From Candidatus Scalindua sp. (GTDB lineage Bacteria; Planctomycetota; Brocadiia; Brocadiales; Scalinduaceae), in the NCBI GenBank assembly GCA_030748215.1, contig JASMMK010000012.1, forward strand, positions 1 to 64,000: DNA of 64,000 bases. The letters run 5' to 3'. The notes beneath the pieces are model-generated. The model did not search any database. It was not told the DNA's origin and saw only the letters and a list, made by a program, of their open reading frames with translations. Both the position numbers and the translations under genes were made by a program. Shown one piece after another: positions 1-14,307 of the stretch; positions within the stretch are counted from its first letter, which is position 1; each line of letters opens with the position of its first letter.

Positions 1-191
1 TTTTTTTTTTGATAGTTGCGCCAACCAAACGTGTAGTAGGTAAGAGCAAAAAGCATTGATAAAACAAAATATGTATAAAATTTACTAACGTGATAGTTAT
101 CCAGGTTATCACCTGATCCTAGACATACCATAATATTAAATAAAACAAATGCCCAGATTGCTATTAACTGTCCAATTGTTATTTTGTACAT
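1..191 (-). CDS. Partial small membrane protein (runs off window)
   Basis: On the minus strand an ATG at 191 opens a frame with no stop down to base 1 (63 codons visible). The peptide is hydrophobic, with two probable membrane spans: one directly after the start (through ITIGQLIAIWAFVLF) and one near residues 42-56 (FVLSMLFALTYYTFG). The 3' end lies outside the window. I do not recognise the family. A promoter-like repeat lies about 50 bp upstream, at 239-276, in the right orientation. The frame could be fortuitous because it is short; the hydrophobic pattern and the upstream promoter favour a real gene. Confidence 0.45.
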   Translation of the reverse strand, partial: MYKITIGQLIAIWAFVLFNIMVCLGSGDNLDNYHVSKFYTYFVLSMLFALTYYTFGWRNYQKK

Positions 192-238
192 AAGTTGTGT
201 GGTATGAAAAGTTGTAGATTATAAGAATATTGGGGTTC

Positions 239-276
239 ATAATACTCAGGTACTTATCAAAATCAAGGGGAATTTA
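239..276 (-). promoter_or_regulatory. Promoter-like element, duplicated at 7047-7084
   Basis: Read on the minus strand this segment carries TTGATT, a 16-base spacer and TATTAT, a plausible housekeeping -35/-10 pair, pointing at the partial gene at 1-191. It matches 7047-7084 at 33 of 38 positions, and that copy also lies just upstream of a minus-strand gene. The rest of 192-431 holds no gene that I can support. Confidence 0.4.
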
Positions 277-431: not shown

Positions 432-851
432 ATGAATGTTATAACTGATTCTGTAGAGATATCTACACGTGGACACACAGACATAATTGATATTACGCCG
501 CAGGTAGAACAAGTCCTGGAGGAAGCAGAACTCGAACGTGGCAATCTTACTGTTTTTGTTTCGGGGTCTACGGCGGGAATTACGTCTATTGAGTATGAAC
601 CGGGTTTGCTCAAGGATCTGCCGGAAGCCTTTGAAAAGATGGCTCCCACAGGGGTTACGTATCATCATGATGAGGCGTGGGGGGACGGCAATGGTTATGC
701 CCACGTTCGTGCGGCCATGTTGGGTTCTTCATTCACCGTGCCTTTTGATAACGGCAAGCTTCTGCTGGGAACGTGGCAGCAGATAGTGGTGATAGACTTT
801 GATAACCGGCCAAGAAGGCGCAATGTAGTTGTACAAATGATTGGTGAATAG
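432..851 (+). CDS. YjbQ-family (UPF0047) protein
   Basis: This is a 139-residue protein of the YjbQ/UPF0047 family, small beta-rich proteins linked to a side activity of thiamine-phosphate synthesis; their physiological role is poorly defined. The family signature is clear: HHDEAWGDGNGYAH (from about residue 77), then RAAMLGSS, and the C-terminal GTWQQIVVIDFDNRPR. His, Asp and Glu of this signature form the conserved metal or substrate pocket. Length is normal for the family (about 130-140). The start ATG at 432 gives the usual N-terminus. The gene is host DNA immediately left of an integrated element. No operon partner is visible downstream, where the next frame belongs to the element. Confidence 0.88.
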   Translation: MNVITDSVEISTRGHTDIIDITPQVEQVLEEAELERGNLTVFVSGSTAGITSIEYEPGLLKDLPEAFEKMAPTGVTYHHDEAWGDGNGYAHVRAAMLGSSFTVPFDNGKLLLGTWQQIVVIDFDNRPRRRNVVVQMIGE

Positions 852-888: not shown

Positions 889-924
889 TAATAATCTCTT
901 TATGATAGATATACATACACACAT
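889..924 (+). repeat. attL: left end of integrated element
   Basis: Bases 900-924 are identical to 9314-9338 (25 bp, containing ATGATAGATATACATACAC), and similarity extends leftwards to 889 (33 of 36 identical with 9303-9338). The core encodes the start Met-Ile-Asp-Ile-His-Thr-His of the PHP phosphatase whose body lies at 9316-10038. The repeat is the expected footprint of site-specific integration by the adjacent tyrosine recombinase. Confidence 0.82.
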
Positions 925-952
925 GGTGTTCAATGTTTTTCTATCATATTGA
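902..952 (+). pseudogene. Displaced 5' stub of PHP phosphatase gene
   Basis: ATG at 902 begins MIDIHTH, the same as the phosphatase at 9316, then diverges into element sequence (MVFNVFLSY) and stops at 950-952. This is the original 5' end of the host gene, with its native upstream region at about 853-901, now separated from the gene body by the inserted element. Confidence 0.65.
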
Positions 953-975
953 TGAGCAACAACTTGCAATTCCGC

Positions 976-2022
976 TCACATGACATTTTCTTTGACCGTA
1001 GTCATATCGTAGTCAGACTCTAACGCTTCTACTCCAATTCTTAAACTTTCGGGAGAGTGATGGGCATAACGTTGAGTCATTTTGATATCCATATGCCCTA
1101 ATAATTTTGATATTTTATAGATATCAATCCCTCTCTGTGCCATGCGAGTTGCAAAACAATGTCTCAGGTCGTGGAATCTGAAGTCAGTGATTTTTGTTTT
1201 TTCCAGTGACTTGCGAAAAGAGTATCCTAGACTAATAGGATTAATTTTTCCACCATCTCTGTTCAAAAAAACATAGTCATTTTCTAAATTCCTTACCTTT
1301 GACTTTTTTACGACTACATCTAATGCATTTTTGTTTAGTGGTACTGTTCTTTGCTCTCCATTCTTTGCCTCAGTGATAAGGATGGTTTTTCTGAAAACAT
1401 TGACTCTTGACCATTCTAGCGAAATCAATTCACCCTGCCTTAGGCCAGTATTTAGGCTAAAGACTATTATTTCACTAAGCCACTCAGGGCTATTCTCAAT
1501 GAGTCGTCTTTCTTCATCTTCGCTAAGCCACCTATCTCTCTTGTTTCTCTCTTTCTCTTTTGATACTTTTGAGACAGGATTATCACTGAGCCACTCCCAC
1601 TCCTTAATCGCTACATTAAATGCCACTGAAAGCATTGACAACGCACGATTTACGGTAGCAGGCTTAACACCATCTCCTTTTCTTGACATCTTATAACGTG
1701 AAATCATTTTTGGAGAGATAGACATTAAATTCGCATTTCCAAAGAAAAGCATAAGGCTTTTTAAGGAGTTTTCATAACTCTTTTGCATATTCTCAGATAC
1801 TGTTGGAGAATGCTCCATCATAAATTTCTCCATCATTTCTTTAAGAGTCTTATTATTGCCAATAGGTTTCTGGAAATAGCTCCCCTCAATAATTTCGACC
1901 CTTACCTTTGCTTCAATTGCCTTTGCAAGTCTCTTGTCAGCCGTTCCAAGGCTCTTCTGAATCCTTCTCCCATTATGACGAATAGACATCCACCACAGGC
2001 CACTATCTTTCCTCTTAAACAT
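976..2022 (-). CDS. Tyrosine recombinase (phage-type integrase)
   Basis: Site-specific recombinase that would catalyse integration and excision of the surrounding element. The C-terminal catalytic domain has all the expected signatures: Arg in NTGLRQGELISLEW, HDLRHCFATRMA (HxxR), LGHMDIKMTQRYAHH (His and the nucleophilic Tyr). The N-terminal part has the Arm-binding type start (LWWMSIRHNGRRIQKSLGT) and a SAM-like core-binding domain in the middle. A longer frame opens at 2064, but ATG 2022 follows AGAGGAGG at ideal spacing, so I chose it (348 aa). The gene lies about 50 bp from attL with its 3' end facing the att site. Its last codons overlap one pair of putative arm-binding sites (998-1015). 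Confidence 0.93.
   Translation of the reverse strand: MFKRKDSGLWWMSIRHNGRRIQKSLGTADKRLAKAIEAKVRVEIIEGSYFQKPIGNNKTLKEMMEKFMMEHSPTVSENMQKSYENSLKSLMLFFGNANLMSISPKMISRYKMSRKGDGVKPATVNRALSMLSVAFNVAIKEWEWLSDNPVSKVSKEKERNKRDRWLSEDEERRLIENSPEWLSEIIVFSLNTGLRQGELISLEWSRVNVFRKTILITEAKNGEQRTVPLNKNALDVVVKKSKVRNLENDYVFLNRDGGKINPISLGYSFRKSLEKTKITDFRFHDLRHCFATRMAQRGIDIYKISKLLGHMDIKMTQRYAHHSPESLRIGVEALESDYDMTTVKENVM
998..1015 (+). repeat. Putative integrase arm sites, left pair
   Basis: GTAGTCA occurs at 998-1004 and 1009-1015, one helical turn (11 bp) apart. The same paired heptamer with the same 11-bp period occurs near the other end at 9162-9179, in the same orientation. Such paired short direct repeats close to both att cores are what lambda-type integrases bind with their N-terminal domain. 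Function is inferred. Confidence 0.45.
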
Positions 2023-2075
2023 ACTCGCCTCCTCTCTTGAGGTCTGACCGTGCCTGTATGTCACTATGGGATGTA

Positions 2076-2339
2076 TTATATACCATTACTATGAAAGCCT
2101 CCAATTATTTTATTAGCAATATCCTCACATTGATTATAGCTGCGTTTCAACCCTGCCATTACTTTGTCTATATCATGAAGATCAAAGAGAACTCTACGGC
2201 CAATCTTAATGGAGGGGATTCTGCCTGTTGAACTCCACTCATATAATGTTTTGACTGGCAAAGAAGTATAAATAGAAAGCTCCTTAACTGCCACATAGCG
2301 TTTTACAGGATTGCTTTTAATTAAGTTTGGGTTATCCAT
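2076..2339 (-). CDS. Excisionase/AlpA-type HTH protein
   Basis: An 87-residue DNA-binding protein with a MerR-like winged helix of the HTH_17/excisionase kind: VAVKELSIYTSLPVKTLYEWSSTGRIPSIKIGRRVLF, spanning about residues 16-55, followed by DLHDIDKVM. Such proteins serve as recombination directionality factors or as transcriptional activators of the integrase. It lies directly upstream of the integrase on the same strand with a gap of about 50 bp, so the two are probably co-transcribed. Whether it drives excision or only regulates cannot be told from sequence. Confidence 0.82.
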   Translation of the reverse strand: MDNPNLIKSNPVKRYVAVKELSIYTSLPVKTLYEWSSTGRIPSIKIGRRVLFDLHDIDKVMAGLKRSYNQCEDIANKIIGGFHSNGI

Positions 2340-2510
2340 AATTGTCTAAATAGAAAATACAAGTTTCCAAAAAGTAATAGATACTTGATACATTTTTACA
2401 TCTAATACATTTTCATGTTTAAATACATGTCTTGTTGCGGCTTAGGTAATGCACTAAAATATGTACTTAATTTATTTCTGCATATCATTCGGCATTTAGT
2501 ACATAAAATC

Positions 2511-4871
2511 TCATAACATTCCTACTAGGCATTCTGTTTCTTTCTCACATAACGAATCGACAGGTTTTTTATATAACGAATTAAAATTATCATCCTTCTC
2601 AAATGTAATCGGATATCCAGCCATGTTTCTAGCACCTATCTCAAATGTTATTCCTCCTATATCCATAAGGTTAGGTTTAATTTTTTCAAGTTGATTTCTT
2701 AATGTCCTACTTGCTTTAGGGAAACTCGAATCTTTTTTTTCTGGATTTGCAATTTCTCTTAGTTCTTTCCATGCCTCTTTAATCGTTCCACTCCAAGTGT
2801 CCTTGTCGTTCATGAAGGCCACCACGGCTAGAGCAAGTGTATTATGCTGTATTACCTCCTCATTCTGTCTTTCTACATTCTGCTGATATGCTTTTATAAA
2901 CTCAGAGCCTTTATGCCCCAAGGCTTCCGCTATAGCATATCCCCATTTTGCAAAATCGGCCATTCTAGGCAATTGTATTAGGTTTACATTCGGGTAAATA
3001 TCCATCGCTTTAGCAAGTGTATCAAAAATACCCCCTATGATTTCTGGCTTTTCTCTTTCAAAAAGTTTCCATAGTTCTTTCTCATCTACTCTTTTATTTT
3101 GCGCTATCCTCTCTAAATGCAAGAGAATAGTTCGATCCATCAAGTCTGGCTTAGAGACGAGAAGATTAATGCCATTCAAACCAATGCACCGCTTAACTTG
3201 GTAGATGACATCCTCATCATCAGTATAAAGCTGCCGCTTACTAAACCCTCCTCCTGTGCAGGCTTGAGCTAATAGGTCAGACATCCAAGTCGGCAAATCA
3301 CTCATATTATCAAACAAACACACGTGATGATGCGAAATGACTTGAGTTAATTGTGTTATCTCCTTTGGAGTGATTAATGTTTCAATACTGGAAGGATCAC
3401 ATATTTTTTTTATAACCTTACAGAGTGTTGTCTTTCCGGCACCCTGAGAACCATGTGGGTGAAATATCGGATGAGGAATGTCAGGAATGAAACAAGAGAT
3501 AATATAAACTAAAACTAGTAGCTGATTTTCCTTATCTACATTTAAAGAATTAAATATTTTCCACGGATTACTACCACCCACAGGAGTAGACTGCGCTTGC
3601 TGATGTGAATACCTTCTAAAAAGAATCGGTGAATTTTCTATATTCCAACCCGCCTTAGTTATCTTCACGGCTTTCCCATCACCGAGATCATACCATATAG
3701 CACCATTCAATTGTGCGACTCGATTGAATAATTCTTTTTTTGAGTTTTCATAGATCGCTTTGCCCTCCAACGTTGTAATTGTTTGGTTTAAGCTGTCACT
3801 ATTAGGTGTCATACCTTTAGTTTTATACATTTTATAAGAAAGGTACTGTTTGATCTTTCTAGATCGTAAAGAAACAACTTCATTATTAAGAAAAGCGTAT
3901 GCCTCTTTATTTTCATCATGAAACAAAGGAAGTGCTGAAGCTATTTCTAAGAGATTTACACATTGTGAGGTCTTCTTATCCGGCTTTGCTATCTCTAATC
4001 CCGCTTTTTTTGCATAATTGAAAAATGTGGCAATAGTGATTCTCTTTTCACTTCTATATTCCCTGATGCACTGGTCGTATTGTTTATCACAAGCGACAGG
4101 ATCATATTTATTGCTAACCGAACTTATTCTATGAAAATACTTTCTTCCCTTTTCTTGTAGTTCACTCGCAATGGCAAATCCTACTCTAAGCCATTCATTA
4201 TAGGAGTCGTCACCCAAGACCACCCGTTTTTTTTCAACCTGACTCACTACATGTTCTATATGGCAGATCATTTTCTCAACATCTTCAATACACGTTTGAT
4301 TGTTTTCATGTCTCTTTCCATTACTTTCTATGTAATTCTTAAAAACTTCTGCCTCCCTATTAAAATATAAATCAGCATCCCAAGAGATATAGCGTAACCG
4401 GCAAATATCCTTACATTGTGAGTCAACTTTAAGACCATATTTTTCTAGATGATGTTTCTCCAAAGCTTTAAAGGCACTGTAATGTTTAGCTGGATCAGCT
4501 TCAATACGTACAATGACTGCTAAGCCTTGATCAGACACAGAGGTAAACATTGCATACACGTAGGGGTCTTGTTTTAGTTTAAGCTTCACTCTTTCAACAT
4601 CCTCCAAATGATCCAAATCGAGTGATATAAAGCCACTGTGTCTGATTAAATTGTCACTTTTACGATAATGAAAGGTTCCTGAAGTAGTAAAACCGGGCAG
4701 AATAGTCTTTTTGATCTTACTTCTTTTCTCTACATCTTTTGTATTTCTGAATCGCTCAACCTTATCTTTCCACTTGCCAGTTTTAATCATATCCAATATT
4801 TTATTAATATCGGCAGTGCAGAAAGGGTTGGCTTTGTCAGCAGATTTAAAACAACTTACTTCTGTTTTCAT
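2511..4871 (-). CDS. Element primase-helicase (VirE_N/PriCT/ATPase)
   Basis: A 786-residue replication protein of mobile elements. The N-terminal part (about 45-175) matches the BT4734/VirE_N type domain: GFISLDLDHL, then AMFTSVSDQGLAVIVRIE and CRLRYISWDADLYFN, with acidic residues suited to a primase-polymerase active site. A PriCT-like linker follows (about 205-295, YNEWLRVGFAIASEL). The C-terminal half is a D5-like helicase ATPase with Walker A GSQGAGKTT near residue 474 and Walker B-type LFDN. Length and order fit primase-helicases of satellites and small islands. The start ATG follows AAGGAGGTATT-type sequence upstream. The gene is flanked upstream by a structured noncoding region that may be its replication origin. 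Confidence 0.82.
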   Translation of the reverse strand: MKTEVSCFKSADKANPFCTADINKILDMIKTGKWKDKVERFRNTKDVEKRSKIKKTILPGFTTSGTFHYRKSDNLIRHSGFISLDLDHLEDVERVKLKLKQDPYVYAMFTSVSDQGLAVIVRIEADPAKHYSAFKALEKHHLEKYGLKVDSQCKDICRLRYISWDADLYFNREAEVFKNYIESNGKRHENNQTCIEDVEKMICHIEHVVSQVEKKRVVLGDDSYNEWLRVGFAIASELQEKGRKYFHRISSVSNKYDPVACDKQYDQCIREYRSEKRITIATFFNYAKKAGLEIAKPDKKTSQCVNLLEIASALPLFHDENKEAYAFLNNEVVSLRSRKIKQYLSYKMYKTKGMTPNSDSLNQTITTLEGKAIYENSKKELFNRVAQLNGAIWYDLGDGKAVKITKAGWNIENSPILFRRYSHQQAQSTPVGGSNPWKIFNSLNVDKENQLLVLVYIISCFIPDIPHPIFHPHGSQGAGKTTLCKVIKKICDPSSIETLITPKEITQLTQVISHHHVCLFDNMSDLPTWMSDLLAQACTGGGFSKRQLYTDDEDVIYQVKRCIGLNGINLLVSKPDLMDRTILLHLERIAQNKRVDEKELWKLFEREKPEIIGGIFDTLAKAMDIYPNVNLIQLPRMADFAKWGYAIAEALGHKGSEFIKAYQQNVERQNEEVIQHNTLALAVVAFMNDKDTWSGTIKEAWKELREIANPEKKDSSFPKASRTLRNQLEKIKPNLMDIGGITFEIGARNMAGYPITFEKDDNFNSLYKKPVDSLCEKETECLVGML

Positions 4872-4946
4872 TTAAGTTTAATACCTCCTTTTCTTTGCTC
4901 ACACTTGTATGTGCGAGTAATTAAAAAATTAGAAATGCTCTTATAC

Positions 4947-5098
4947 ATAACACCTCACAGCCTACCAGCCTGACAGGCATACGCTAATGTTTATAAGTTA
5001 AAAACTTGTCTCTATGTTAGTAGTATCTGCTTTCAGATGAGATGGAAGATTTTCCTACTTTCATCTTTAGAAGTTTCTGTAAGGCTGTGAGGTGTTAT
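4947..5098. repeat. 17-bp inverted repeat; possible replication origin
   Basis: ATAACACCTCACAGCCT (4947-4963) is exactly complementary to 5082-5098, leaving 118 bp between. A second, shorter inverted pair lies just beyond each arm (GACAGGCAT 4972-4980 and ATGCCTGTC 5113-5121). The arms sit in the 564-bp gene-free stretch 4872-5435, right upstream of the primase-helicase. This could be an element origin, a structured RNA or a recombination site. Confidence 0.5.
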
Positions 5099-5304
5099 TT
5101 ACACCCCACCTCAAAGAATGCCTGTCTGGTTTTGATTAAATCACTCTGCCAATAAATCCTGTGACCATTCTGCAAAGTAAAAAAACTTCCTTTCTTAGTT
5201 TTCTACTTTCAAATAAATAATCCAAATGCCTCTCTGATCGACAAAAATTCTTTTTTCATACCTACTTCTTTTCAAAGAAATCTTCATACTTTTTCCGCAT
5301 TATA

Positions 5305-5423
5305 CTAGAAAATAATGAATTATCAATTTAGTGGTTCTAGGGTGCTTCTAGTCTGTAGAAATGGCTTAAAACGGCTTTAGAGGCAAGAAATAATGAGGTA
5401 CTACGTAATTCTAGTCTTTCTAG
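5305..5423. repeat. Cluster of TTCTAG hexamers
   Basis: Five TTCTAG copies (5305-5310 inverted, 5335-5340, 5346-5351, 5409-5414, 5418-5423) lie in 120 bp of the same noncoding block, downstream of the gene at 5436-6386. They could be binding sites of an element regulator or iterons. No other evidence supports a function. Confidence 0.3.
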
Positions 5424-5435
5424 TGTGTGTTTAGA

Positions 5436-6386
5436 CTAGCTGTTATTGATAATGTCAAAGTGTTCAGGTTCACTAGGGGGAGGGTATTTTCCATCAGCAC
5501 ATTGAGGCATGTTAACTTTTATATCTTCGAGAACTTTTCTTATATTTGACATGTTGTCATATACATGCGTTGGTGTTTTCTTAGTTGGGTCAATTCCAAA
5601 TTCACCTAATGAACATGGTTTTCCATTCCTCCACCACTTCATAAGTTTTTCTGCCATAGTTCTCACTTTCGCTCTAGAGGTTGGTGAAACAGCTATTGAC
5701 TCTAGGTTTCCAAATGTAAATTTACCTGTGGTTTTATCATAGGATAGTAATGTTTCTATAGGTATTATTCCTTGCCCTTCCGTTTCTGGGATTTTCTCAA
5801 CAGGCGCAATAACTGCTTCCTTACTATCAAGAAAAATTGTTTTAAATTGTTCTTTAAAATATTGTGACATACCATCTAGACTTTCTGTGTAAACAACTAA
5901 CCAATTATAACAGGCATTTCCACTTTCAATAGCGGTTGCCAGTTTATGATAGATTAGTTTATTTTCATCATTACACAACAAATTGTCTAGAAAAAGCATT
6001 CCTTTGCATGCATAGAAATACCCTTCATCATAATATGACATTTCACCAAGCCAATGAGGATCATCTTGCTCATAAGTAAGTATGTCATAAATATAAGCAC
6101 TATCATGCCATGCAAGGTTAACATAATCCCATGTTCGTACGGTATTCCTGCCAAATGAGAATTCTCCGTCGTCTTTGTCAAACTCCTGACGTTGGTCTAA
6201 TCCCCCATTCGCTTTGTGGATTTTTAGTAATAAGTCCTTCCTACCAACTTTATCCTCACCATAAAGCAAAACAGGTTGGTGCTTCTTGTAACATTCCAAA
6301 AGATCCGACTCAATAGAAGATAATTTTTGTTTTTCTTTATTCATATTAGTAGTAGTGGCTTTCCTCGTTTGCCCATATGTAGCCAC
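5436..6386 (-). CDS. Degenerate sigma54-activator-like AAA protein
   Basis: A 316-residue protein whose middle resembles the AAA+ domain of sigma54 activators. QPVLLYGEDKVGRKDLLLKIH (residues 37-57) lines up with the Walker A region (GETGTGKE...AxAIH), and GMLFLDNLL (129-137) with the Walker B region (GTLFLDEI). The key residues are altered: the P-loop reads GEDKVGRKD, Walker B ends Asp-Asn instead of Asp-Glu, and the GAFTGA loop is replaced by an aromatic-rich stretch (MSYYDEGYFYACKG). ATPase activity and sigma54 contact are therefore doubtful. A C-terminal section (about 240-290) may be DNA-binding. The frame starts with GTG 6386; ATG at 6344 (MNKEKQ) is an alternative. Homology is judged by eye and is only moderately certain. 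Confidence 0.6.
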   Translation of the reverse strand: MATYGQTRKATTTNMNKEKQKLSSIESDLLECYKKHQPVLLYGEDKVGRKDLLLKIHKANGGLDQRQEFDKDDGEFSFGRNTVRTWDYVNLAWHDSAYIYDILTYEQDDPHWLGEMSYYDEGYFYACKGMLFLDNLLCNDENKLIYHKLATAIESGNACYNWLVVYTESLDGMSQYFKEQFKTIFLDSKEAVIAPVEKIPETEGQGIIPIETLLSYDKTTGKFTFGNLESIAVSPTSRAKVRTMAEKLMKWWRNGKPCSLGEFGIDPTKKTPTHVYDNMSNIRKVLEDIKVNMPQCADGKYPPPSEPEHFDIINNS

Positions 6387-6395
6387 TTACTAGGC

Positions 6396-6983
6396 TTATT
6401 TTTTATACCTAGTGTCAATACTCGTAGTAGCTTTGTAGTTAGTGCCAAAAACATTTAAAAGACTTTTGAGTATAGCGTTTGGATAAGCCGTATATTCTTC
6501 AGATCCGGCACCAATACAACCCTCCCAAACAGTCATGTACTTTTTATTTGTAACATCTTGGGTTGAATATAAATCTAAATATATTTTCTTAACTGTGTAG
6601 TTATAACTATATGGTATTGCCGCTGTTGTTGTTGAAGTATCACTATAGTAAGTACTACCCACATAACCGGATGAGCTTGTTGTAGTTGGCATAAATAATG
6701 TTGAGTTCATTTTCGATGTTTTAGACCCAGTCTGGAAGGATAATATATAAGACGATGACAGCAGGTCTTCAACTATGTTAAACCCATTATCTACCATTTC
6801 TTGTTTCAGAAATGAGTAAAACTGCCTGTCGGCAATACTTGCCTTGTCTGAAAATAAAATAAATATTGCGTCTAGTTTATTTAGAGAATATCTAGGGTCG
6901 GTCTGAGATGAAATATATACAGTCTTAGATGCGCATGCAGAAATTAAAGTTATTAATAAAAAACATATGAATATTATTTTCAT
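6396..6983 (-). CDS. Predicted lipoprotein
   Basis: An exported lipoprotein of about 195 residues. ATG 6983 follows GGAAG at good spacing and gives a signal peptide MKIIFICFLLITLISAC with lipobox I-S-A-C; the longer frame from 7028 would bury this signal, so it is rejected. The mature part is Ser/Thr/Tyr-rich with a flexible stretch (about residues 90-130, TTTSSSGYVGSTYYSDTSTT) and ends in a domain with WEGCIGAGSEEY. This resembles DUF4136-type lipoproteins in general layout, but I cannot assign it. It ends 10 bp before the AAA-like gene on the same strand, so the two probably form an operon transcribed from the promoter at 7047-7084. Confidence 0.72.
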   Translation of the reverse strand: MKIIFICFLLITLISACASKTVYISSQTDPRYSLNKLDAIFILFSDKASIADRQFYSFLKQEMVDNGFNIVEDLLSSSYILSFQTGSKTSKMNSTLFMPTTTSSSGYVGSTYYSDTSTTTAAIPYSYNYTVKKIYLDLYSTQDVTNKKYMTVWEGCIGAGSEEYTAYPNAILKSLLNVFGTNYKATTSIDTRYKK

Positions 6984-7046
6984 GATGTCTTCCGACTTTG
7001 AGATCCCAACAGTGAAATCTTTTAGCATGTAGAAATACTAGAGTTT

Positions 7047-7084
7047 ATAATACTCAGGCAAGCATCAAAATCAAGAGGAATTTA
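7047..7084 (-). promoter_or_regulatory. Promoter-like element, copy of 239-276
   Basis: On the minus strand it reads TTGATT, 16 bases, TATTAT, placed about 65 bp upstream of the lipoprotein start at 6983. It agrees at 33 of 38 positions with 239-276, which lies outside the element. The conserved part extends beyond the two hexamers. Confidence 0.45.
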
Positions 7085-7249
7085 AACACCTGAATTCAAA
7101 GGGATATAAGCCATTTCGCACTATTGCCAACTCCAAGTTGATAAGTAAAGTATTGTAAGGTATAATGAGTGAGAAATAAAAATAATAACAATAAAAAGCT
7201 ACAAACTAAAGACATACCATTTTTGTAATACTTACATGAGAGTGAACAA

Positions 7250-7567
7250 TTGAAAGAAGAACTATCTGAATCGAAGATTAAGCACAAAAGCAGAGAGAGC
7301 CCTATGTCAGCTAACGGTGACGTTACCCAAAGAGCCAGATTTTCTAGGTTTGCATCTTATAAGCATCAGGTTCATAACTTATCAGACATCTCGCATAAGA
7401 AGTTCTGGTCGGCTGAGGAACTTGCTGAGAGACTGAACGTAAATATAACTACGATTTACCGGTATATTAAAACTGGTAAGGTTCTGGCAAACAAAGTCGG
7501 TAGAGAGTTTCAAATTACTGATTCTGAGTTTCATAAGTTTGAAAGCAAATGTAGTAAGTGGAGTTAG
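7250..7567 (+). CDS. HTH_17/excisionase-type DNA-binding protein
   Basis: A 105-residue protein with a C-terminal excisionase-family helix-turn-helix: WSAEELAERLNVNITTIYRY (from about residue 50), then IKTGKVLANKVGREFQITDSEF. The N-terminal 45 residues are polar and probably disordered. The start is uncertain: TTG at 7250 opens the frame, and ATG at 7304 (MSANGDV) is a good alternative. It is divergent from the lipoprotein/AAA operon, and with the HTH protein at 2076-2339 it gives the element two AlpA-like regulators, one for each transcription direction. Confidence 0.72.
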   Translation: MKEELSESKIKHKSRESPMSANGDVTQRARFSRFASYKHQVHNLSDISHKKFWSAEELAERLNVNITTIYRYIKTGKVLANKVGREFQITDSEFHKFESKCSKWS

Positions 7568-7719
7568 GACACTATATATGAAACTGAATAGCAAATATAC
7601 TTTCAATTGACAATTTTCCAAGTACCATTGAATCGATATTGAGACAGCACCTATTTATTTAATATAGGATTTTGATACATCAAGTGTAACTTATACTTAC
7701 TGCTATGGAGCCAAATAAA

Positions 7720-8406
7720 ATGAATAATAAAATAACTGTAATAATAATTTTTGCAGTTATTTTATTTTGTAAAATGCCAACTGTGCATTCTGAAGAAAGC
7801 AAATTATATACTGACGAATTTTTGTTTGTTAGTACGTATTTTAATTGCTTATCAAATTTCGTTGATGTCGATGATCTATTATTGTTTGCAAATATTTGTA
7901 TAAATAAGCTTGAAAAGGATTACTATTATTCAGAGCAAGAGGTAGTAGACAGTGATTTTATGAAAAAGCTAAAATATGAGCAAGCATATATCTCCAAGAT
8001 GTTAAGAAAAATGAAAGAATACAAAAATTCAACAAATCTACAGATAAAGAAAGCTGCAAATAAAATTTTAAATATTTTTGAACTAAAGAAAGATATTAAT
8101 ATCCGTGCACAAGAATCATTTTATTATGTAAAACTCCGTAAATTTAAAGCAGGTATTGCTGAAGGAACTGAGTTGGCTGATGAACATGGCAGTGATTTAG
8201 ATCATTATTCTGACATTAGTGTTTTAATATGTGATGTTATTTTCCCTGATTATAAGGCGTTAAGAATAACATACAAAGAAAGAGCACATTTAAAGCAACA
8301 AATAGAAGAATTAAAAAAAATAGAATGGAGTTTTAAATTGTCATTGGGTTTTATAGAAAAACAGTTATCTATTAAACATAGTTGGCTACCTAACATTAAC
8401 CCTTAA
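7720..8406 (+). CDS. Exported protein of unknown function
   Basis: About 228 residues with a signal peptide (MNNKITVIIIFAVILFCKMP, cleavage near TVHS). ATG 7720 gives a cleaner signal than ATG 7705. The mature protein is Lys/Asp-rich and mostly helical, without recognisable catalytic motifs; two Cys near NCLSNF and ICINKL could pair in the periplasm. AT content is very high even for this window, as expected of element cargo. I do not recognise the family. It ends just before a strong hairpin and faces the DUF5681 gene. Confidence 0.6.
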   Translation: MNNKITVIIIFAVILFCKMPTVHSEESKLYTDEFLFVSTYFNCLSNFVDVDDLLLFANICINKLEKDYYYSEQEVVDSDFMKKLKYEQAYISKMLRKMKEYKNSTNLQIKKAANKILNIFELKKDINIRAQESFYYVKLRKFKAGIAEGTELADEHGSDLDHYSDISVLICDVIFPDYKALRITYKERAHLKQQIEELKKIEWSFKLSLGFIEKQLSIKHSWLPNINP

Positions 8407-8414
8407 CCCTTAAC

Positions 8415-8448
8415 AACTATAATACTTTCTTAAGCAAGTATTATAGTT
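8415..8448. terminator. Perfect 13-bp hairpin between convergent genes
   Basis: AACTATAATACTT (8415-8427) pairs perfectly with 8436-8448 around an 8-base loop. The stem is AT-rich and lacks a long T run, so it may be a weak bidirectional terminator or an mRNA 3' stabiliser for the genes ending at 8406 and 8500. Confidence 0.45.
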
Positions 8449-8499
8449 TAAAATACTCCTAAATTGCACATGCTTATTTAATGAGGTGCAGTATACGTT

Positions 8500-8850
8500 T
8501 TACAAATAATTTTCCGTGTAGTTCACTTCTACAGATTCTATTTCTTTTTCATTTTCTTGTTTAGCTAACACGCCCAGATAATCAACATATGTTATCCCTA
8601 AATTGACATTCTCAGTATATTGCGGAGCTTTCCCCCACCCACGATCAAGAAGGGCATTACACGCTTGGACTTTTGCTGTATCAGACGCTTTTGGATTCTT
8701 AATAATTGTTGATAATGTTTTTAACGCATCTTCCGTATGAATACGAGCTAAATCGCGAATTGTTTTATCTGATTTAGGTCTTCCTAATGGATTCCCAGAT
8801 TGTCCCGGCTTAAACATACCGGCATGTCTCTTTATGTTTTTATCTTCCAT
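8500..8850 (-). CDS. DUF5681 protein (phage packaging-associated)
   Basis: A 116-residue protein opening with the hallmark MFKPGQSGNPLGRPKSDKT (residues 11-29) of DUF5681. Members are common in prophages and often lie next to terminase genes. A helical segment follows (ARIHTEDALKTLSTIIKNP) and then QACNALLDRGWGKAPQ, which resembles small-terminase-like DNA-binding helices. Role is inferred: possible DNA recognition for packaging, which would suit a satellite that hijacks helper-phage capsids. AACAGGGAGGTAACAG upstream of the ATG is a strong ribosome binding site. It is the last gene before attR. Confidence 0.75.
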   Translation of the reverse strand: MEDKNIKRHAGMFKPGQSGNPLGRPKSDKTIRDLARIHTEDALKTLSTIIKNPKASDTAKVQACNALLDRGWGKAPQYTENVNLGITYVDYLGVLAKQENEKEIESVEVNYTENYL

Positions 8851-9161
8851 AACACTGTTACCTCCCTGTTCTCAGATATTATTTTTTGCCTATCTGCTTA
8901 TTTAATGTGCTAAAATTAAGTCAAAATGTAGATAATAATTTAATACCTTATTTACAACATTTGATGTGTTTTGTTCTGTAAGGACTTAAACCCAAAAATG
9001 TATTTATGTGTTAAATGTAGCAATTTCTCCTTACTCTTGGAAACCATTCTATATGTTTTTTATATTTGTATTTCTTAATACACAACCATGAGACTCATAC
9101 ACCACCATTCCCAGCCCCCCTCTTGGGATGCTATGGGGTCAAAAAAAAAGGGGGAGGGGGT

Positions 9162-9179
9162 GTAGTCAAAACGTAGTCA
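9162..9179 (+). repeat. Putative integrase arm sites, right pair
   Basis: GTAGTCA at 9162-9168 and 9173-9179, 11 bp apart, mirrors the pair at 998-1015. It lies in the gene-free stretch 8851-9313, which also contains a C-run/G-run segment (about 9114-9160) but no ORF that I can support. Distance to the core is about 135 bp, against about 75 bp on the left. Confidence 0.45.
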
Positions 9180-9313
9180 AATCTAGCGCAATCAGCAGAA
9201 CTCCACAGGAATCAATAGAATTAAGTTGTAAATACATCTCATTGTGCTAAAAAAGGATAGCGACATAACAGGCACAAAATTAACCTCTTACGAAAAATAT
9301 TATAATAACTTCC

Positions 9314-9338
9314 TTATGATAGATATACATACACACAT
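9314..9338 (+). repeat. attR: right end of integrated element
   Basis: Exact 25-bp copy of 900-924. It contains the ATG (9316) and codons for Ile-Asp-Ile-His-Thr-His of the host PHP gene, so the element's own end restores a complete coding sequence. Upstream bases 9303-9313 belong to the element, yet resemble the host leader at 889-899 (8 of 11). Confidence 0.82.
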
Positions 9339-10038
9339 ACTTCCTTCCATAGATGATGGGCCGGAAACAATAGAGGAATCTATTGAACTTTGCAAAGTCG
9401 CCGCAAGTGATGGAATTAAGAAGATTGTTGCAACACCGCATTCGAATAACGGAGTATACGAACCGAAGAGTTCTGAGATAATTAAAGCGGTTGATGCACT
9501 TAATACGCAGTTGGTGGTGCAACAAATTGACATTGATATATTCCCCGGTGCGGAGATACACATTAGTGAGGGATTGGTAGAGAGTGTAAAAAACGGGGAT
9601 GTACTTACGATCAACAATGGCGGGAAGTTCATCCTTCTTGAGTTTCCTTTTGTCTTCATCCCTCCCGGTAGTGATAAATTTGTATTCAACCTCAAGGCCA
9701 ACGGTATCATTCCAATTATTGCACATGCGGAAAGAATATCGGCATTTCAAAGAAAACCGGAACTTGTGGAGCAGATGGTTACAATTGGTGCTCGTGTGCA
9801 GATTAATGCGAATTGTTTGTCAAAAAGGGCAGACCGTGGAGAAAGAAAATGCGCTGAGTGGCTGTTGAAGAAGAAATTGGTGCATTTTATTGCTTCCGAT
9901 ACACATTCACTTCGTGGAAGGCCTCCGATTTTGTCTGAAGCTGTTGGATGTGCTTCCCGCATTGTAGGGAAAGAAGAGGCCAGGGCTCTTGTCTGTCGTA
10001 ACCCCGAGCAGATTATAAATGGTCTCGACATTTGCTGA
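9316..10038 (+). CDS. PHP-family tyrosine phosphatase (CpsB/YwqE type)
   Basis: A manganese-dependent protein-tyrosine phosphatase of the PHP fold, usually dephosphorylating the tyrosine kinase that controls polysaccharide export. Metal-binding motifs are all present: MIDIHTHILPSIDDGP at the N-terminus, ATPHSNN, FPGAEIHI, ILLEFPF, IAHAER, and FIASDTHS near the C-terminus. At 240 aa from ATG 9316 the length is typical. The frame stays open back to GTG 9244 in element DNA, but the conserved family start is MIDIHTH. The element insertion has replaced everything upstream of the core, so expression now depends on element sequence. No capsule export genes lie nearby. Confidence 0.9.
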   Translation: MIDIHTHILPSIDDGPETIEESIELCKVAASDGIKKIVATPHSNNGVYEPKSSEIIKAVDALNTQLVVQQIDIDIFPGAEIHISEGLVESVKNGDVLTINNGGKFILLEFPFVFIPPGSDKFVFNLKANGIIPIIAHAERISAFQRKPELVEQMVTIGARVQINANCLSKRADRGERKCAEWLLKKKLVHFIASDTHSLRGRPPILSEAVGCASRIVGKEEARALVCRNPEQIINGLDIC

Positions 10039-10075
10039 TTTGAAGTATAACTTATTTGAATGTTTATGAATATAC

Positions 10076-10091
10076 AACGAACACGTTCGTT
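10076..10091. promoter_or_regulatory. Dyad symmetry between convergent genes
   Basis: AACGAAC (10076-10082), two bases, GTTCGTT (10085-10091). It sits between the phosphatase end and the convergent gene at 10101-10784. It may be a weak terminator or an operator. Confidence 0.3.
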
Positions 10092-10100
10092 TATTAAAGG

Positions 10101-10784
10101 CTAATTCTTTGTTGACTGGATGTGCCTGATCTTGGATGGACAGGTCATTCTGCTGAACTGTCGTAAATCACGCAGGCGGTCTTCCTGTGGGAGACGGTCG
10201 ATATATTCTGTATACATCATTCCGAATTTTCCGGCAACTTCATATCTTTTTTTTTCTAATGTGTCCTCAACATCAAATTTCCGTTTGTAAAAGAGATGAT
10301 GCCTTATATATTCTCTGTCAAATTCACTCAACTTCAATGATCTGTTCTGTAATGCAACGAAATATTTTAACACCAGGTATTTAGTTACATTTGCCTGTAG
10401 TTCCAGTTCGAGCAGGCTGAAAGGGCGATTTGATTTATAGTTCTGAGCTATAAATAAAAAATGATCCAGCTCTTCAACAAAGCTTGCACACAGATCAATG
10501 TTCTCATCATGTATGCCGAGTCTCGGGTCGTTATCTTCCAATTCTCTGATTAATGCATCCGGGTAATAAATGCTTACTTTAAGCGTATCTCCAGCATCCC
10601 TTATTAAGACCCTTGCTCCAGAACGACTATTAACAACTGTTCTGATCTCTTCCTTTGCATAGAACTCTTCGTAACCTTTGTCACCAATAATATACTGTTC
10701 TATATTGGTAATTCCTGTATCCAGTGCATAAGTCTTCTCTATCTTCTTTTGTAACTCGTTTATCAAAGGGTGTCTGATTCGCAT
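10101..10784 (-). CDS. Hypothetical protein, pair with next gene
   Basis: A 227-residue soluble protein that I do not recognise. Visible traits: an acidic middle with a helical ENIDLCASFVEELDHFLFIAQ stretch (about residues 94-114), a long charged helix (YIRHHLFYKRKFDVEDTLEKK, near 159-179), and a basic C-terminus with one Cys. No signal peptide or membrane segment. It is preceded by the 268-aa gene on the same strand with a 33-bp gap, so they are almost surely one operon and probably function together. The ATG lies after GAGGTAAC, a fair ribosome binding site. Confidence 0.65.
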   Translation of the reverse strand: MRIRHPLINELQKKIEKTYALDTGITNIEQYIIGDKGYEEFYAKEEIRTVVNSRSGARVLIRDAGDTLKVSIYYPDALIRELEDNDPRLGIHDENIDLCASFVEELDHFLFIAQNYKSNRPFSLLELELQANVTKYLVLKYFVALQNRSLKLSEFDREYIRHHLFYKRKFDVEDTLEKKRYEVAGKFGMMYTEYIDRLPQEDRLRDLRQFSRMTCPSKIRHIQSTKN

Positions 10785-10817
10785 TGTTACCTCTGGTATC
10801 GAATAGTTAGCAGATTA

Positions 10818-11624
10818 TTATGCAAGCACAGGTTTTTCAGGATGAAAATACTCTTTGTTCATAAAACTCAAAACCTGTGCAACTGCCTCAAAACCTTCTG
10901 ATAATTGTGATAGTGTGCCTGTAAGTCTGTTTTTTCTTGCATTGGTATGTCCTGATGCAAGACCGTAATATGTTTTTCCGTAACCTACGTAATACTGCTT
11001 ATCAACAGGTCTTCGTTTATGTTCATATCTGTACTTAATATATTCCGGAATCATTCCCGTCAGAAAGAGCGAATAATTACCGATATGACAGTAAATGTGA
11101 AACTTTTCAAGATTATCAGAATGTAGAGAATCTGTAATCATATCTACTATATATTGATGTGTTATTTTCTCATCATCTCCCATACCGAACAATTTTGAAC
11201 TCTCTATAAATTGTGCCAGCATGTTTGCAATATAGTTTGAAACATGAGTGTCTTCAAGCAGACTCATGAGCCTGTTTTGATCCCACGGAATAACCGGCTC
11301 CATGCTGTTTAAAACATCTACCGTCTTTTCAATAAACTTTACATCTTTTCTTTTTTCCTTAAATGCCCTTCTCAAAAGCAACGAAAACAGAAAATAGGGA
11401 GATATAGACAGAATACTCTCTGTACAGCTCATCACTTTGTTGAATACTCTGTCACTGTCGATCATTTTAGCTATTACATCTTCATCTCCGTTTATCAAAC
11501 TTGCTATATTCTTATAATCATTCCGTTTGGTCACATAGCTTTCAATAAGAAAAAGGAGATCTTTGTCTGATAGCCCTTGTAAGCTCTCTTTTTGAAGTTC
11601 ATTAACAGCTTCGTCTTTCTCCAT
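10818..11624 (-). CDS. Hypothetical protein, first gene of pair
   Basis: About 268 residues. I chose ATG 11624 (MEKDEAVNELQKES) because TAGGGAG stands 6 bases upstream; the frame continues to 11657 without a better signal. The protein is helical, with segments such as SILSISPYFLFSLLLRRAFK (about 93-112) and a C-terminal stretch rich in Tyr/His (KQYYVGYGKTYYGLASGHTN). This hydrophobic stretch looks buried rather than membrane-spanning. No known motif was recognised. It is followed by the 227-aa gene. Its promoter should lie in 11625-12072. Confidence 0.65.
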   Translation of the reverse strand: MEKDEAVNELQKESLQGLSDKDLLFLIESYVTKRNDYKNIASLINGDEDVIAKMIDSDRVFNKVMSCTESILSISPYFLFSLLLRRAFKEKRKDVKFIEKTVDVLNSMEPVIPWDQNRLMSLLEDTHVSNYIANMLAQFIESSKLFGMGDDEKITHQYIVDMITDSLHSDNLEKFHIYCHIGNYSLFLTGMIPEYIKYRYEHKRRPVDKQYYVGYGKTYYGLASGHTNARKNRLTGTLSQLSEGFEAVAQVLSFMNKEYFHPEKPVLA

Positions 11625-12072
11625 TGTTTTCTCCCTAATAAATTGAAATGTATACATTCAGGAAAATCGAACTTTACCAAATCCTTCAAAACACGGATAA
11701 TATTCGCTTATTCGAACATGTTACATGAAAATAGTTTGAGTTTTGCGATGTTAGAATCGCAACAATTGTACCAAAAGAGCGCTGTAATCTGCTTTTTGTA
11801 ACCTGTCATAAATTCACAAGTTACGTTGTTTGTATGTTTATACACTTGCTTTTGAGAAAATTTTGGTAAGTAATTTTTGCACTAAAGAGGTCATTTTTAG
11901 TAACAATACGTCTTAATTCGGCAAATCTTAAGAAAATGGTTGAATATTTAAAGCCTTTTACTATATGATGCAACGTTCCATTTAAAAAAACAAATTTTCA
12001 GTTTGTCGTTCAAACTCGACAACTACTCTTTTATTAAACACTTATTTGTAACTTTTCATAAAGGAATATGAT
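11625..12072. other. Divergent intergenic region
   Basis: 448 bp of AT-rich DNA between the hypothetical operon (leftwards) and ahcY (rightwards). It must hold both promoters. I see no SAH-type riboswitch, tRNA or ORF. AAGGA (12061-12065) is the ribosome binding site of ahcY. Confidence 0.5.
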
Positions 12073-13446
12073 ATGACTACCCTTACGTTAGATTACAAGG
12101 TTGCCGACATAAACCTGGCGGATTGGGGACGTCGTGAAACTACCCTCGCCGAAGGTGAAATGCCCGGTTTAATGAGCCTTAGAAAAAAATATGAGAATGA
12201 GCAACCTCTTAAGGGTGCTAAAATTATCGGCTGTATTCACATGACAATACAGACCGCTGTATTGATTGAAACACTTGTTGCCCTGGGTGCGGAAGTCCGT
12301 TGGTCTTCATGTAACATTTTTTCTACACAAGACCACGCCGCCGCTGCTATGGCTGCTGCCGGTGTTGCTGTTTATGCGTGGAAGGGTCAGACTGAGGAAG
12401 AAGGGTCATGGTGTATAGAACAGACTATTCTGAAGGATGGCAAGCCGTGGGATGCAAATGTGTTACTTGATGATGGTGGCGACCTCACTGCCATGGTGCA
12501 CGAGAAGTATCCACAGATGCTTGATATAATCCATGGTATAACGGAAGAGACTACAACAGGTGTTCACAGACTGTTCGACATGATGGAAAAAGGAGAGTTA
12601 AAGGTTCCTGCCATCAACGTTAACGATTCAGTTACTAAATCAAAAAATGATAACAAGTACGGGTGCCGTCACAGTTTGAATGATGCCATTAAACGTGGAA
12701 CAGATGCTCTTCTTTCCGGTAAAAAAGCTTTGGTTGTTGGTTATGGTGATGTTGGTAAAGGATCAGCACAGAGTTTGAGCCAGGAAGGGATGATCGTAAA
12801 GATATCCGAGATTGATCCTATCTGTGGTATGCAGGCATGTATGGACGGATACGAAGTTGTTTCACCTTATATAGATGGAAACAACAACGGCTCTCCTGAG
12901 TGCATTGATAAACATTTGTTGGAAAAAACAGACCTGATCGTAACAACTACAGGCAATGTGAACGTATGTGATCGTCACATGCTTGCTTCCGTAAAACGGG
13001 GAGCTATCGTTTGTAATATCGGTCATTTTGATCATGAGATAGACACTCAATTCATGCGTGACAACTGGAGATGGGAAGAGGTGAAACCACAAGTCCATAA
13101 GGTTTACCGATCTGACGATACAGAAGATTACATTATTCTTCTTTCTGAAGGTCGCCTTGTGAATCTTGGCAACGCAACCGGCCATCCGTCACGCATTATG
13201 GATGGTTCATTTACAAACCAGGTACTTGCACAGATATTTCTCTACAAGGAAGCGTGGGCAGACAAACCTGAGTCTGAACGTGAGCCTGTTTACGTGAAGG
13301 TTCTTCCAAAGAAACTGGATGAAGAGGTTGCTGCAGAGATGGTTAAAGGTTTTTCAGGTGTCATTACCGTCATGACACAAGAGCAGTCTGAGTACATCAG
13401 TACTCCAATTGAAGGTCCATTTAAGCCTGAAACTTATAGGTATTAA
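12073..13446 (+). CDS. ahcY: Adenosylhomocysteinase
   Basis: Hydrolyses S-adenosyl-L-homocysteine to adenosine and homocysteine, removing the product inhibitor of methyltransferases. The 457-residue protein carries the family signatures: [37 protein letters not shown], then the NAD-binding [15 protein letters not shown] and [11 protein letters not shown], ending in the usual KPETYRY. NAD-dependent cytosolic tetramer in the family. It stands near metK (14308-15477, opposite strand), so the two ends of the SAM cycle are clustered. It is followed by a strong bidirectional terminator. Confidence 0.97.
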
Positions 13447-13474
13447 TAGGTTCTTTTAAGGGTAGGGTTACCAT

Positions 13475-13513
13475 AAAAAAAGCACAGGAAATTAATGTTC
13501 CTGTGCTTTTTTT
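13475..13513. terminator. Strong bidirectional terminator
   Basis: A run of seven A, GCACAGGAA, a 7-base loop, TTCCTGTGC and a run of seven T. It can terminate ahcY on the plus strand, and by symmetry transcripts from the right. Confidence 0.88.
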
Positions 13514-13538
13514 ACTTAGAGGCCTTAAATATGGAGTG

Positions 13539-13583
13539 CATCATCCGTGATGATGTGTCTTAAAGCAGTGACACGGTCACTGC
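13539..13583. repeat. Two consecutive perfect short hairpins
   Basis: CATCATC CGT GATGATG (13539-13555) and GCAGTGAC ACG GTCACTGC (13565-13583). Both have 3-base loops containing CG and lie between ahcY and the TPR gene. They look like a REP/BIME-type intergenic repeat pair. Confidence 0.5.
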
Positions 13584-13608
13584 ACTACAAAAAAATATTT
13601 CTGCATGA

Positions 13609-14166
13609 TTACTCTGTCCATTCGTCTTTACCAACCTTTTTGTAAAGGGCCCTCATATTTTCCCGTGTAATAGCAACTTCCGGGTGATCAGGTCCAAGGG
13701 TCTGTTTCAGTATTTTCAAGGCGTGCCTGTAAAGAGGTTCTGCTTCTTTATATCTTCCCTGGTTATAATAGAGTTCCGCCAGATTGTTCAGGGATATTGC
13801 AACATCAGGGTGGTCTTCCCCAAGAGCCTCTTCATTTATTCTCAATGCCCGTTTATACAGTGGCTCAATTTCTGCATATGTACCTTTCATTACGTAAAGC
13901 TCGGCGATATAGTTCAATGATATTGCTACTTTTGGATCGTCAGGGCCAAATGTATCTTCTGCAACCTTTAATGCCTCTTCGGCGACACTTAATGCATCCG
14001 GATACCGCTTCTGCTTAAATAGTGTTTTGGCTTTGCCGTTCAATTTTTCCCACAGTACCTCCTGAGCATATACTGATGAGGAAAATGATAATATCAGGAT
14101 CATTGTAAAAATAATTTTAGATCTGGAGGAAGTCTGGAGTCTTAAAATATTTACTAATGTCGTCAT
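13609..14166 (-). CDS. Exported TPR-repeat protein
   Basis: A 185-residue protein with an N-terminal signal segment (SKIIFTMILILSFSSSVYA, about residues 16-34), followed by three or four tetratricopeptide repeats of the 42-residue kinesin-light-chain type: DALSVAEEALKVAEDTFGPD, EPLYKRALRINEEALGEDHP and EPLYRHALKILKQTLGPDHP. Such repeats form a scaffold for protein binding, here probably in the periplasm or paryphoplasm. No catalytic domain. It lies between ahcY and metK but on the metK strand, with a hairpin between it and metK. Its role is unknown. Confidence 0.8.
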   Translation of the reverse strand: MTTLVNILRLQTSSRSKIIFTMILILSFSSSVYAQEVLWEKLNGKAKTLFKQKRYPDALSVAEEALKVAEDTFGPDDPKVAISLNYIAELYVMKGTYAEIEPLYKRALRINEEALGEDHPDVAISLNNLAELYYNQGRYKEAEPLYRHALKILKQTLGPDHPEVAITRENMRALYKKVGKDEWTE

Positions 14167-14202
14167 TGGAATAATCCCGTTGATGTGCGAACTTGTGAAA
14201 AA

Positions 14203-14244
14203 AAGAGGGAGTGGGGTGTTATGACTTCCACTCCACTCCCTCTT
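14203..14244. terminator. Long-stem hairpin between metK and TPR gene
   Basis: AAGAGGGAGTGGGGTG (14203-14218) pairs with 14229-14244 over 16 bp with one G-T pair. On the minus strand a T run follows the stem, so it should terminate metK transcription. A second small hairpin, CCCCGC TGA GCGGGG (14263-14277), lies just before it, directly after metK. Confidence 0.75.
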
Positions 14245-14307
14245 GAAATTGTGTATACAAAGCCCCGCTGAGCGGGGTAAAGGGTAAACTTTAAATTTGG
14301 CCAGTGA

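What the first reader, a model, noticed from the sequence alone, without database searches (positions are those of the whole stretch)
900..9338. Complete 8.4 kb integrated element with exact 25-bp att repeats
The ends are marked by an exact direct repeat, a complete tyrosine recombinase lies next to one end, and the contents (integrase, two AlpA/Xis-type regulators, primase-helicase, DUF5681 packaging-type protein, no structural or conjugation genes) match a phage satellite plan. I know of no described satellite of this kind in anammox-type planctomycetes.
Basis: partly seen in the sequence, partly recalled or inferred. Interest (0 to 1): 0.72.

Follow-up and report, generated by a model that had tools for sequence, protein, structure and literature searches.

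The report
Satellite-like mobile element in anammox bacterium
An 8.4-kilobase piece of mobile DNA sits at the start of a phosphatase gene in a marine ammonium-oxidising bacterium; it belongs to a family of small mobile elements in related bacteria, one of which, at the same spot, appears to carry filamentous-phage genes.

Summary
An exact 25-bp direct repeat (900-924, 9314-9338) bounds an 8,414-bp unit with an intact integrase, two excisionase-type regulators and a primase-helicase; no structural or conjugation gene was recognised in its 8 larger ORFs. The right repeat contains the start codon of a CpsB/CapC phosphatase gene, which stays whole. Relatives show mobility: no primase match in 12 of 12 same-genus genomes (some incomplete), one relative (G010) has yjbQ and the phosphatase about 130 bp apart, and a second element in the same genome shares most of this one's right end (88-90% DNA identity) but sits at a tRNA-like sequence with other cargo. 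Seven delimited elements in five other genomes of the order share the integrase-AlpA module and paired GTAGTCA-type sites near both ends. In a sister Scalindua the closest integrase (68%) sits at the same phosphatase site, on a contig with Zot and secretin genes, so probably a filamentous-phage-like prophage. The satellite reading is plausible, not shown: no helper was found with the families searched, DUF5681 is not shown to package DNA, and a plasmid-like element remains a serious rival. I saw no published description in eight literature searches (listings, two papers read in passages).

The parts
900..924 (+). attL copy of the 25-bp repeat; ATG of a 16-codon phosphatase 5' relic starts at 902
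9314..9338 (+). attR copy of the 25-bp repeat; contains ATG (9316) and first seven codons of the intact phosphatase gene
998..1015 (+). left arm-type site GTAGTCA-N4-GTAGTCA inside the 3' end of int, 98 bp from attL start (function inferred)
9162..9179 (+). right arm-type site GTAGTCA-N4-GTAGTCA, 152 bp before attR (function inferred)
9156..9313 (+). conserved element right end; found at E 1.8e-16 by a profile from six elements of other families
976..2064 (-). tyrosine integrase, 362 aa
2076..2339 (-). AlpA/excisionase-type HTH protein, 87 aa, directly upstream of int as in the seven delimited relatives
2511..4871 (-). primase-helicase: BT4734-like_N + PriCT_2, and a C-terminal half with a Walker-A-like GAGKTT motif (motif recalled)
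5436..6386 (-). 316-aa protein; a homologue in G010 (L116) has a Trans_reg_C domain; putative regulator (inferred)
6396..7028 (-). 210-aa lipoprotein-like ORF (lipobox by inspection only), no family
7250..7567 (+). second excisionase-type HTH protein, 105 aa; 85% aa identical copy in the second element of the own genome
7705..8406 (+). 233-aa ORF with signal-like N-terminus (by inspection), no family above cut-off
8500..8850 (-). DUF5681 protein, 116 aa; 89% aa identical copy in the second element of the own genome
9316..10038 (+). target gene: CpsB/CapC-type phosphatase (PF19567, 4e-56), intact
432..851 (+). left host flank: UPF0047 (YjbQ) family gene

Best explanation
It is an integrated, probably still mobile element of a family in the anammox order, defined by a recombination module: integrase, adjacent AlpA, paired GTAGTCA-type sites about 100 bp inside the left end and about 155 bp inside the right end. 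The integrase, directed by the AlpA/Xis proteins, recombines attP with a site at the start codon of the CpsB/CapC phosphatase gene (inferred). The repeat carries MIDIHTH, so the reading frame is kept, while the gene's leader is replaced by the element's right end (seen in the sequence). After excision the primase-helicase would copy the circle (inferred). It has no recognised transfer genes, so it most likely travels in particles of another phage, as a satellite does (inferred, about 0.5), with a putative regulator and lipoprotein- and secretion-like proteins as cargo.
For: Exact repeat and intact integrase. In G010 yjbQ and the phosphatase are about 130 bp apart without an element and the joined window flanks align on both sides. 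No primase match in 12 of 12 same-genus relatives. A right-end profile from six elements of other families finds the window at 1.8e-16, ending 2 bp before attR, and the phosphatase upstream regions of G011 (5.8e-18), G012 (1.9e-14) and G004 (2.9e-11). A second element in the own genome (C31) shares right end and regulator genes at 88-90% DNA identity beside a tRNA-like sequence and carries a GmrSD_N protein. Arm-type sites lie near both ends in 8 of 8 delimited elements. The integrase pairs with that of G004 at the same site, 100/100 support.
Against: No excised form was seen: the attP junction has no exact match in viral contigs. No resident helper recognised: 0 of 13 same-genus genomes match PF03237 or PF05065, no Zot match in the own genome. 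No terS or cos site identified. At G011 only a right end remains, so the family also decays in place. Arm-type sites were not seen next to int in 6 of 26 relative loci. The C-terminal half of the primase also occurs on plasmids.
Confidence: 0.6

Rival explanations
1. A plasmid-like integrative element: a small replicon with its own primase-helicase that integrates through int and moves as a circle by conjugative hitch-hiking, transformation or vesicles, not in phage particles.
For: The C-terminal half of the primase matches proteins on 36 plasmid records, three of the 8 listed being 12-20 kb (about 30% identity); an element with the same integrase family carries a Rep_1 replicase (L075); no packaging gene recognised in the window element.
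Against: The N-terminal half resembles primases of Flavobacterium, Cellulophaga and other phages; L080 in the same integrase family has a terminase small subunit; no relaxase recognised; oriT was not searched.
Confidence: 0.27
2. A recombined filamentous prophage: an inovirus that lost its Zot, secretin and coat genes and took up a primase.
For: The closest integrase (68%), an AlpA and the left end belong to a contig with Zot and secretin genes at the same site in G004, whose phosphatase also has an element right end; 100/100 pairing of the two integrases.
Against: No inovirus gene was found among the 8 window ORFs; the replication module is of another kind; other delimited elements of the family carry different replication genes.
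Confidence: 0.1
3. A fixed, immobile island: an old insertion now part of the chromosome, the repeat being a relic.
For: No second genome of this species was compared; a solo right end in G011 shows that insertions at this site can become fixed remnants.
Against: Exact 25-bp repeat, intact integrase, no same-genus relative with a primase match, 88-90% identity with parts of a second element.
Confidence: 0.1

Closest known systems
Gram-negative PICIs (phage-inducible chromosomal islands; PMC6092414, passages seen)
   Same: int at one end, AlpA, primase-type replication gene, specific att site, no recognised structural genes
   Different: No helper, induction, interference or packaging shown; primase domains BT4734-like_N/PriCT_2; integrated at the 5' end of a phosphatase gene in an anammox planctomycete
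PICMIs (Vibrionaceae minimalist satellites; PMC10803314, passages seen)
   Same: int, alpA and primase as the core; short direct repeats; few other genes
   Different: Hallmark is integration at fis, and the model's primase is DUF3987/DUF5906; neither is seen here
Integrated filamentous phages (inoviruses), as the G004 locus L058 appears to be
   Same: Same site, closest integrase, AlpA, homologous left end; element right end at the G004 phosphatase
   Different: No Zot or secretin in the window element
Small integrative plasmid-like elements with tyrosine integrases (recalled class)
   Same: int plus own replication gene, no structural genes
   Different: Shares its recombination module with elements that carry phage genes (terminase small subunit, Zot)

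Membership tests
PICI | Specific attachment site | tested here: met
   25-bp repeat at the phosphatase start; same site in G004
PICI | int-alpA-pri/rep gene plan | tested here: met
   primase of another domain type
PICI | Exclusive PICI genes (interference, sometimes terS) | tested here: inconclusive
   none recognised in the window element; terS is only sometimes present in the description seen
PICI | Induction by a helper phage and packaging in its particles | not testable with these tools
   needs culture or virion sequencing; 0 of 13 genus genomes match PF03237 or PF05065
PICMI | Integration at fis | tested here: not met
   site is the CpsB/CapC phosphatase gene
PICMI | DUF3987/DUF5906-type primase | tested here: not met
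   only BT4734-like_N and PriCT_2 pass their cut-offs
Inovirus prophage | Zot/pI-type ATPase and secretin | tested here: not met
   none among the 8 larger window ORFs; both on the G004 contig
int-AlpA element family of the order (defined here) | Integrase of the 51-68% group with AlpA directly upstream | tested here: met
int-AlpA element family of the order (defined here) | Paired GTAGTCA-type (L082: GTGACC) sites at +94..119 and -152..-159 | tested here: met
   8 of 8 delimited elements with a relaxed pattern, window +98/-152; site next to int missing in 6 of 26 relative loci
ICE/IME | Relaxase or conjugation genes | tested here: not met
   none in Pfam and PHROGs scans of the 8 larger ORFs

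The most novel reading that the evidence does not exclude
One recombination chassis (int, AlpA, arm sites, conserved right end) is shared in anammox bacteria by filamentous phages, rolling-circle replicons and primase-type elements, and the window element is a satellite of a filamentous phage with which it shares both integrase type and integration site, being exported by that phage's extrusion machinery.
Probability: 0.1. Interest if true: 0.75.

Novelty: new variant of a known kind. Interest (0 to 1): 0.5.

Why it matters
A defined element family with predictable ends (paired arm-type sites, right end of about 160 bp) can be sought in any genome of the anammox order, where I saw no such elements described in the listings of my searches. 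Modules appear to move between tRNA sites and a protein-gene site. The site itself is of interest: integration replaces the leader of a predicted polysaccharide-regulating phosphatase (function by family name), and element right-end sequence lies directly in front of that gene in 4 of 9 same-genus genomes that have it, with a partial fifth, so element ends may have become its leader (inferred). It also gives a direct test of whether filamentous phages and satellite-like elements share an integration system.

Tried and rejected
That the sequence upstream of the phosphatase in sister species is a native promoter which the element copied: rejected for G004, G011 and G012, because the same sequence type occurs beside a tRNA-like sequence in the own genome and a profile from six elements of other families finds it there. 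It is weaker for G002 (1.9e-9, 1.3e-4) and open for G001 (0.083, none) and G008 (none). G001, G002 and G008 do share the last 95-125 bp with each other and in part with the window.

First profile not independent: one search trained on the own genome's second element (L113), so I repeated it without L113 and without any same-genus row. Of four same-family loci of other genera added there (L053-L056), one (L056, G016) gave a partial hit (2.5e-4) about 210-280 bp upstream of its phosphatase; I did not follow it.

That the element is a defence island: of 7 window proteins scanned, PADLOC matched the VirE/PriCT2 and PrimPol models (primase), HTH models mad1, MTase_II and WYL (105-aa protein) and weakly Orf5 (233-aa ORF, 0.0049). 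I take these as shared domains. A GmrSD_N protein lies in the second element (C31), not here.

DUF5681 as a terminase small subunit: weak terS-like hits in L114 (0.0012, on the side of that element away from int) and L116 (3.8e-5, no int seen there) lie near homologues of the 316-aa protein, but pairwise similarity to L114's is one 35-residue match, the best phage match is to a protein annotated hypothetical, and folding could not be run. Undecided.

Papers: 'phage satellite' + 'planctomycet' 0; Scalindua + integrase 4, none on such elements by title; anammox + prophage 78, of which 15 listed; inovir + planctomycet 22, 10 listed; the ten listed of 70 do not contain 'anammox'.
Full report
Observation. 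The window (contig C12 of a 2.44-Mb, 66-contig, 94.9% complete genome) holds an exact 25-bp direct repeat at 900-924 and 9314-9338. It is the only exact 25-mer occurring twice on the + strand; 5.8e-6 pairs are expected by chance. The right copy contains the start codon (9316) and first seven codons of a CpsB/CapC-type phosphatase gene (PF19567, 4e-56). The left copy begins a 16-codon relic. Joining the outer flanks in a script gives the same frame, with 50 bp between the yjbQ stop and the ATG.

Gene content. From left to right: integrase (976-2064, minus; PF00589 1.3e-39, phrog_1 1.5e-81), an AlpA-type protein (2076-2339, minus), primase-helicase (2511-4871, minus; BT4734-like_N 7.2e-25, PriCT_2 8.9e-15), a 316-aa protein (5436-6386, minus), a lipoprotein-like ORF (6396-7028, minus), a second excisionase-type protein (7250-7567, plus), a 233-aa ORF (7705-8406, plus) and DUF5681 (8500-8850, minus; 5.4e-8). 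None of these 8 matched a structural PHROG; smaller ORFs were not scanned. The 316-aa protein has no family of its own; a homologue in G010 carries a Trans_reg_C domain (5.1e-8), so I take it as a possible regulator (inference). It was found in 5 of 62 genomes of the order, mostly as partial matches. Signal and lipobox calls are by inspection only.

Mobility from relatives. The primase was found in 8 of 62 genomes of the order, the own one included, and in none of the 12 other genomes of the genus, which are 77-96% complete. DUF5681 was found in 1 of 62, the own genome, twice. The phosphatase was found in 9 of 13 same-genus genomes, the own one included. In G010 yjbQ and the phosphatase lie about 130 bp apart and the joined window flanks align on both sides. 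In G006 only 122 bp upstream are held; they do not match the right-end profile, so it counts as empty only with that limit. Genus name: G004's contig C47 has the length (29,249) and match position of a record titled Candidatus Scalindua sp. SI037_bin72, so the window is taken to be from that genus.

A family of elements. The integrase search in 39 genomes, the own one included, found matches in 38. I took 26 relative loci plus the window and sought repeats across each; 7 gave an exact repeat of 46-65 bp around units of 7.5-15.7 kb. The other 19 gave none of that kind, several being cut by contig ends. The 7 lie in five genomes, one of them (G011) of the same genus. ARAGORN calls a tRNA over the left repeat in 5 of the 7 (Pro, Gln, Thr, Val, Gln); in L075 and L082 the repeat looks like a tRNA end but none was called. 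In all 8 delimited elements, the window included, the integrase is at the left end with an AlpA gene directly upstream, and a pair of GTAGTCA-type motifs (GTGACC in L082; variants allowed by the pattern) lies 94-119 bp after the start of the left repeat and 152-159 bp before the right one, two elements having a further overlapping pair. In one search a motif pair close to int was seen in 20 of 26 relative loci and not in 6 (L057, L079, L085, L090, L091, L092). The window's pairs, 998-1015 and 9162-9179, are the only exact ones in the window; 5e-4 expected. I read them as integrase arm sites (inference). Cargo differs: a terminase small subunit (phrog_57, 1.9e-27) and DnaB in L080, Rep_1 in L075, a Rep_trans match below its cut-off in L074, a DUF927 primase and a tape-measure-like protein (phrog_8125, 1.2e-23) in L073, a ResIII helicase in L088. 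Only selected proteins of the relatives were scanned, so absence of structural genes there is not claimed.

Second element in the same genome. DUF5681 led to contig C31 (L113), where 781 aligned bp match window 8500-9278 at 88% and 448 bp match window 7212-7659 at 90%. There the right end runs into a tRNA-like 3' end upstream of an ftsH-like gene (both by inspection; ARAGORN calls no tRNA in the piece held), and the neighbouring ORFs include a GmrSD_N protein (PF03235, 3.6e-31). The contig ends inside the element, so its left end was not seen.

The phosphatase site. A right-end profile from 8 elements not at this site, searched in 499,802 bp of same-genus loci (some overlapping), found the window at 9156-9314 (4e-26) and the phosphatase upstream regions of G011 (5.9e-25), G004 (9.1e-23), G012 (3.5e-18), G002 (1.9e-9, partial) and weakly G001 (0.083); G008, G006 and G010 gave none there at E up to 1. 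Because that profile held the own genome's second element, I repeated it with the six elements of other families only: window 9160-9312 at 1.8e-16, G011 5.8e-18, G012 1.9e-14, G004 2.9e-11, G002 1.3e-4, none at G001, G008, G006, G010. So right-end sequence is clear at 4 of 9 loci, with G002 a partial fifth. In G011, 39 kb beyond the right end holds no match to the window's or the family's element proteins and chromosome-like genes by inspection: a solo right end. In G012 only 1.8 kb is held, with a sensor-like ORF, so an element further out is not excluded. In G004 the left side is on another contig (L058): yjbQ, further ORFs, a remnant with a Zot C-terminus (87% identical to the Zot ORF beyond int) and a right end (8.3e-9; 7.3e-4), then the att copy, integrase (67-68% identical), AlpA, and 5-6 kb further Zot (PF05707, 1.2e-10) and a secretin C-terminus (PF00263, 1.7e-20), where the contig ends. 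The left ends of G004 and the window align over about 160 bp. I read this as tandem filamentous-phage-like prophages at the same site; that zot and secretin lie inside the element is inferred, since its right end falls in an assembly gap. The two integrases pair with 100/100 support among 28 rows.

How it probably works. Integration at the start codon keeps the coding frame and swaps the leader; excision would need the Xis-type proteins; the primase-helicase would copy the circle. These steps are inferred from families and anatomy. Transfer is unknown. PICIs and PICMIs move with helper phages on a similar gene set (PMC6092414 and PMC10803314, passages seen). Here no helper was recognised: 0 of 13 same-genus genomes match PF03237 or PF05065 (other terminase and capsid families were not searched). 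Zot is in 6 of 39 genomes at E up to 1e-3 (5 over the cut-off), not in the own one. The N-terminal half of the primase resembles phage primases (44 phage records, none covering 80% of the query), the C-terminal half plasmid proteins (36 plasmid records, none covering 80%), so the replication gene does not decide.

Known or new. In eight literature searches (listings, often a part of the papers found, plus passages of two papers) I saw no description of such an element in anammox bacteria; that is no proof that none exists. It is not a PICMI (site and primase type not met) and not an inovirus (Zot and secretin not met); PICI membership cannot be decided. I file it as a new variant of a known kind: a satellite-like integrative element.

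Noticed in passing
L113 (G000:C31:8000-22250), right end about 9195-10010, regulator 10604-10921, GmrSD_N protein 12354-14150: Second related element in the same genome, at a tRNA-like site upstream of an ftsH-like gene, with a GmrSD-type restriction protein nearby; contig ends inside it.
   Followed up: partly
L058 (G004:C47) 7332-8068: Remnant of a second, probably older element (Zot C-terminus plus right end) directly beside the attL copy of the present one: tandem integration at the phosphatase site.
   Followed up: partly
L056 (G016) 9070-9142: Partial right-end profile hit about 210-280 bp upstream of the phosphatase of another genus of the family (2.5e-4).
   Followed up: no
window 205-276 and 7013-7084; G000:C45:44521-44593, C11:14888-14961: Dispersed repeat of about 72 bp (76-78% identity), four places in the own genome, one inside the element and one near its left flank.
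   Followed up: partly
L075, L077, L081, L083, L089 (G011) and L078 (G008): Six nearly identical integrases (tree end branches 0.016-0.045), five in one genome: a recent burst of one element type in G011.
   Followed up: no
window 29314-29337 and 29425-29448: Exact direct repeat of 24 bp, 111 bp apart.
   Followed up: no
L114 (G050:C1) 7946-17518: Distant element-like run: weak terS-like protein, homologue of the window's 316-aa protein, BT4734-like_N/D5 primase, methylase-like ORF (by inspection) and an integrase.
   Followed up: partly
L152 and L158: Integrases 60% and 56% identical in MAGs labelled Deltaproteobacteria and Alphaproteobacteria, from an isolate series (OFTM) that also holds a Scalindua MAG: transfer or binning error.
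   Followed up: no
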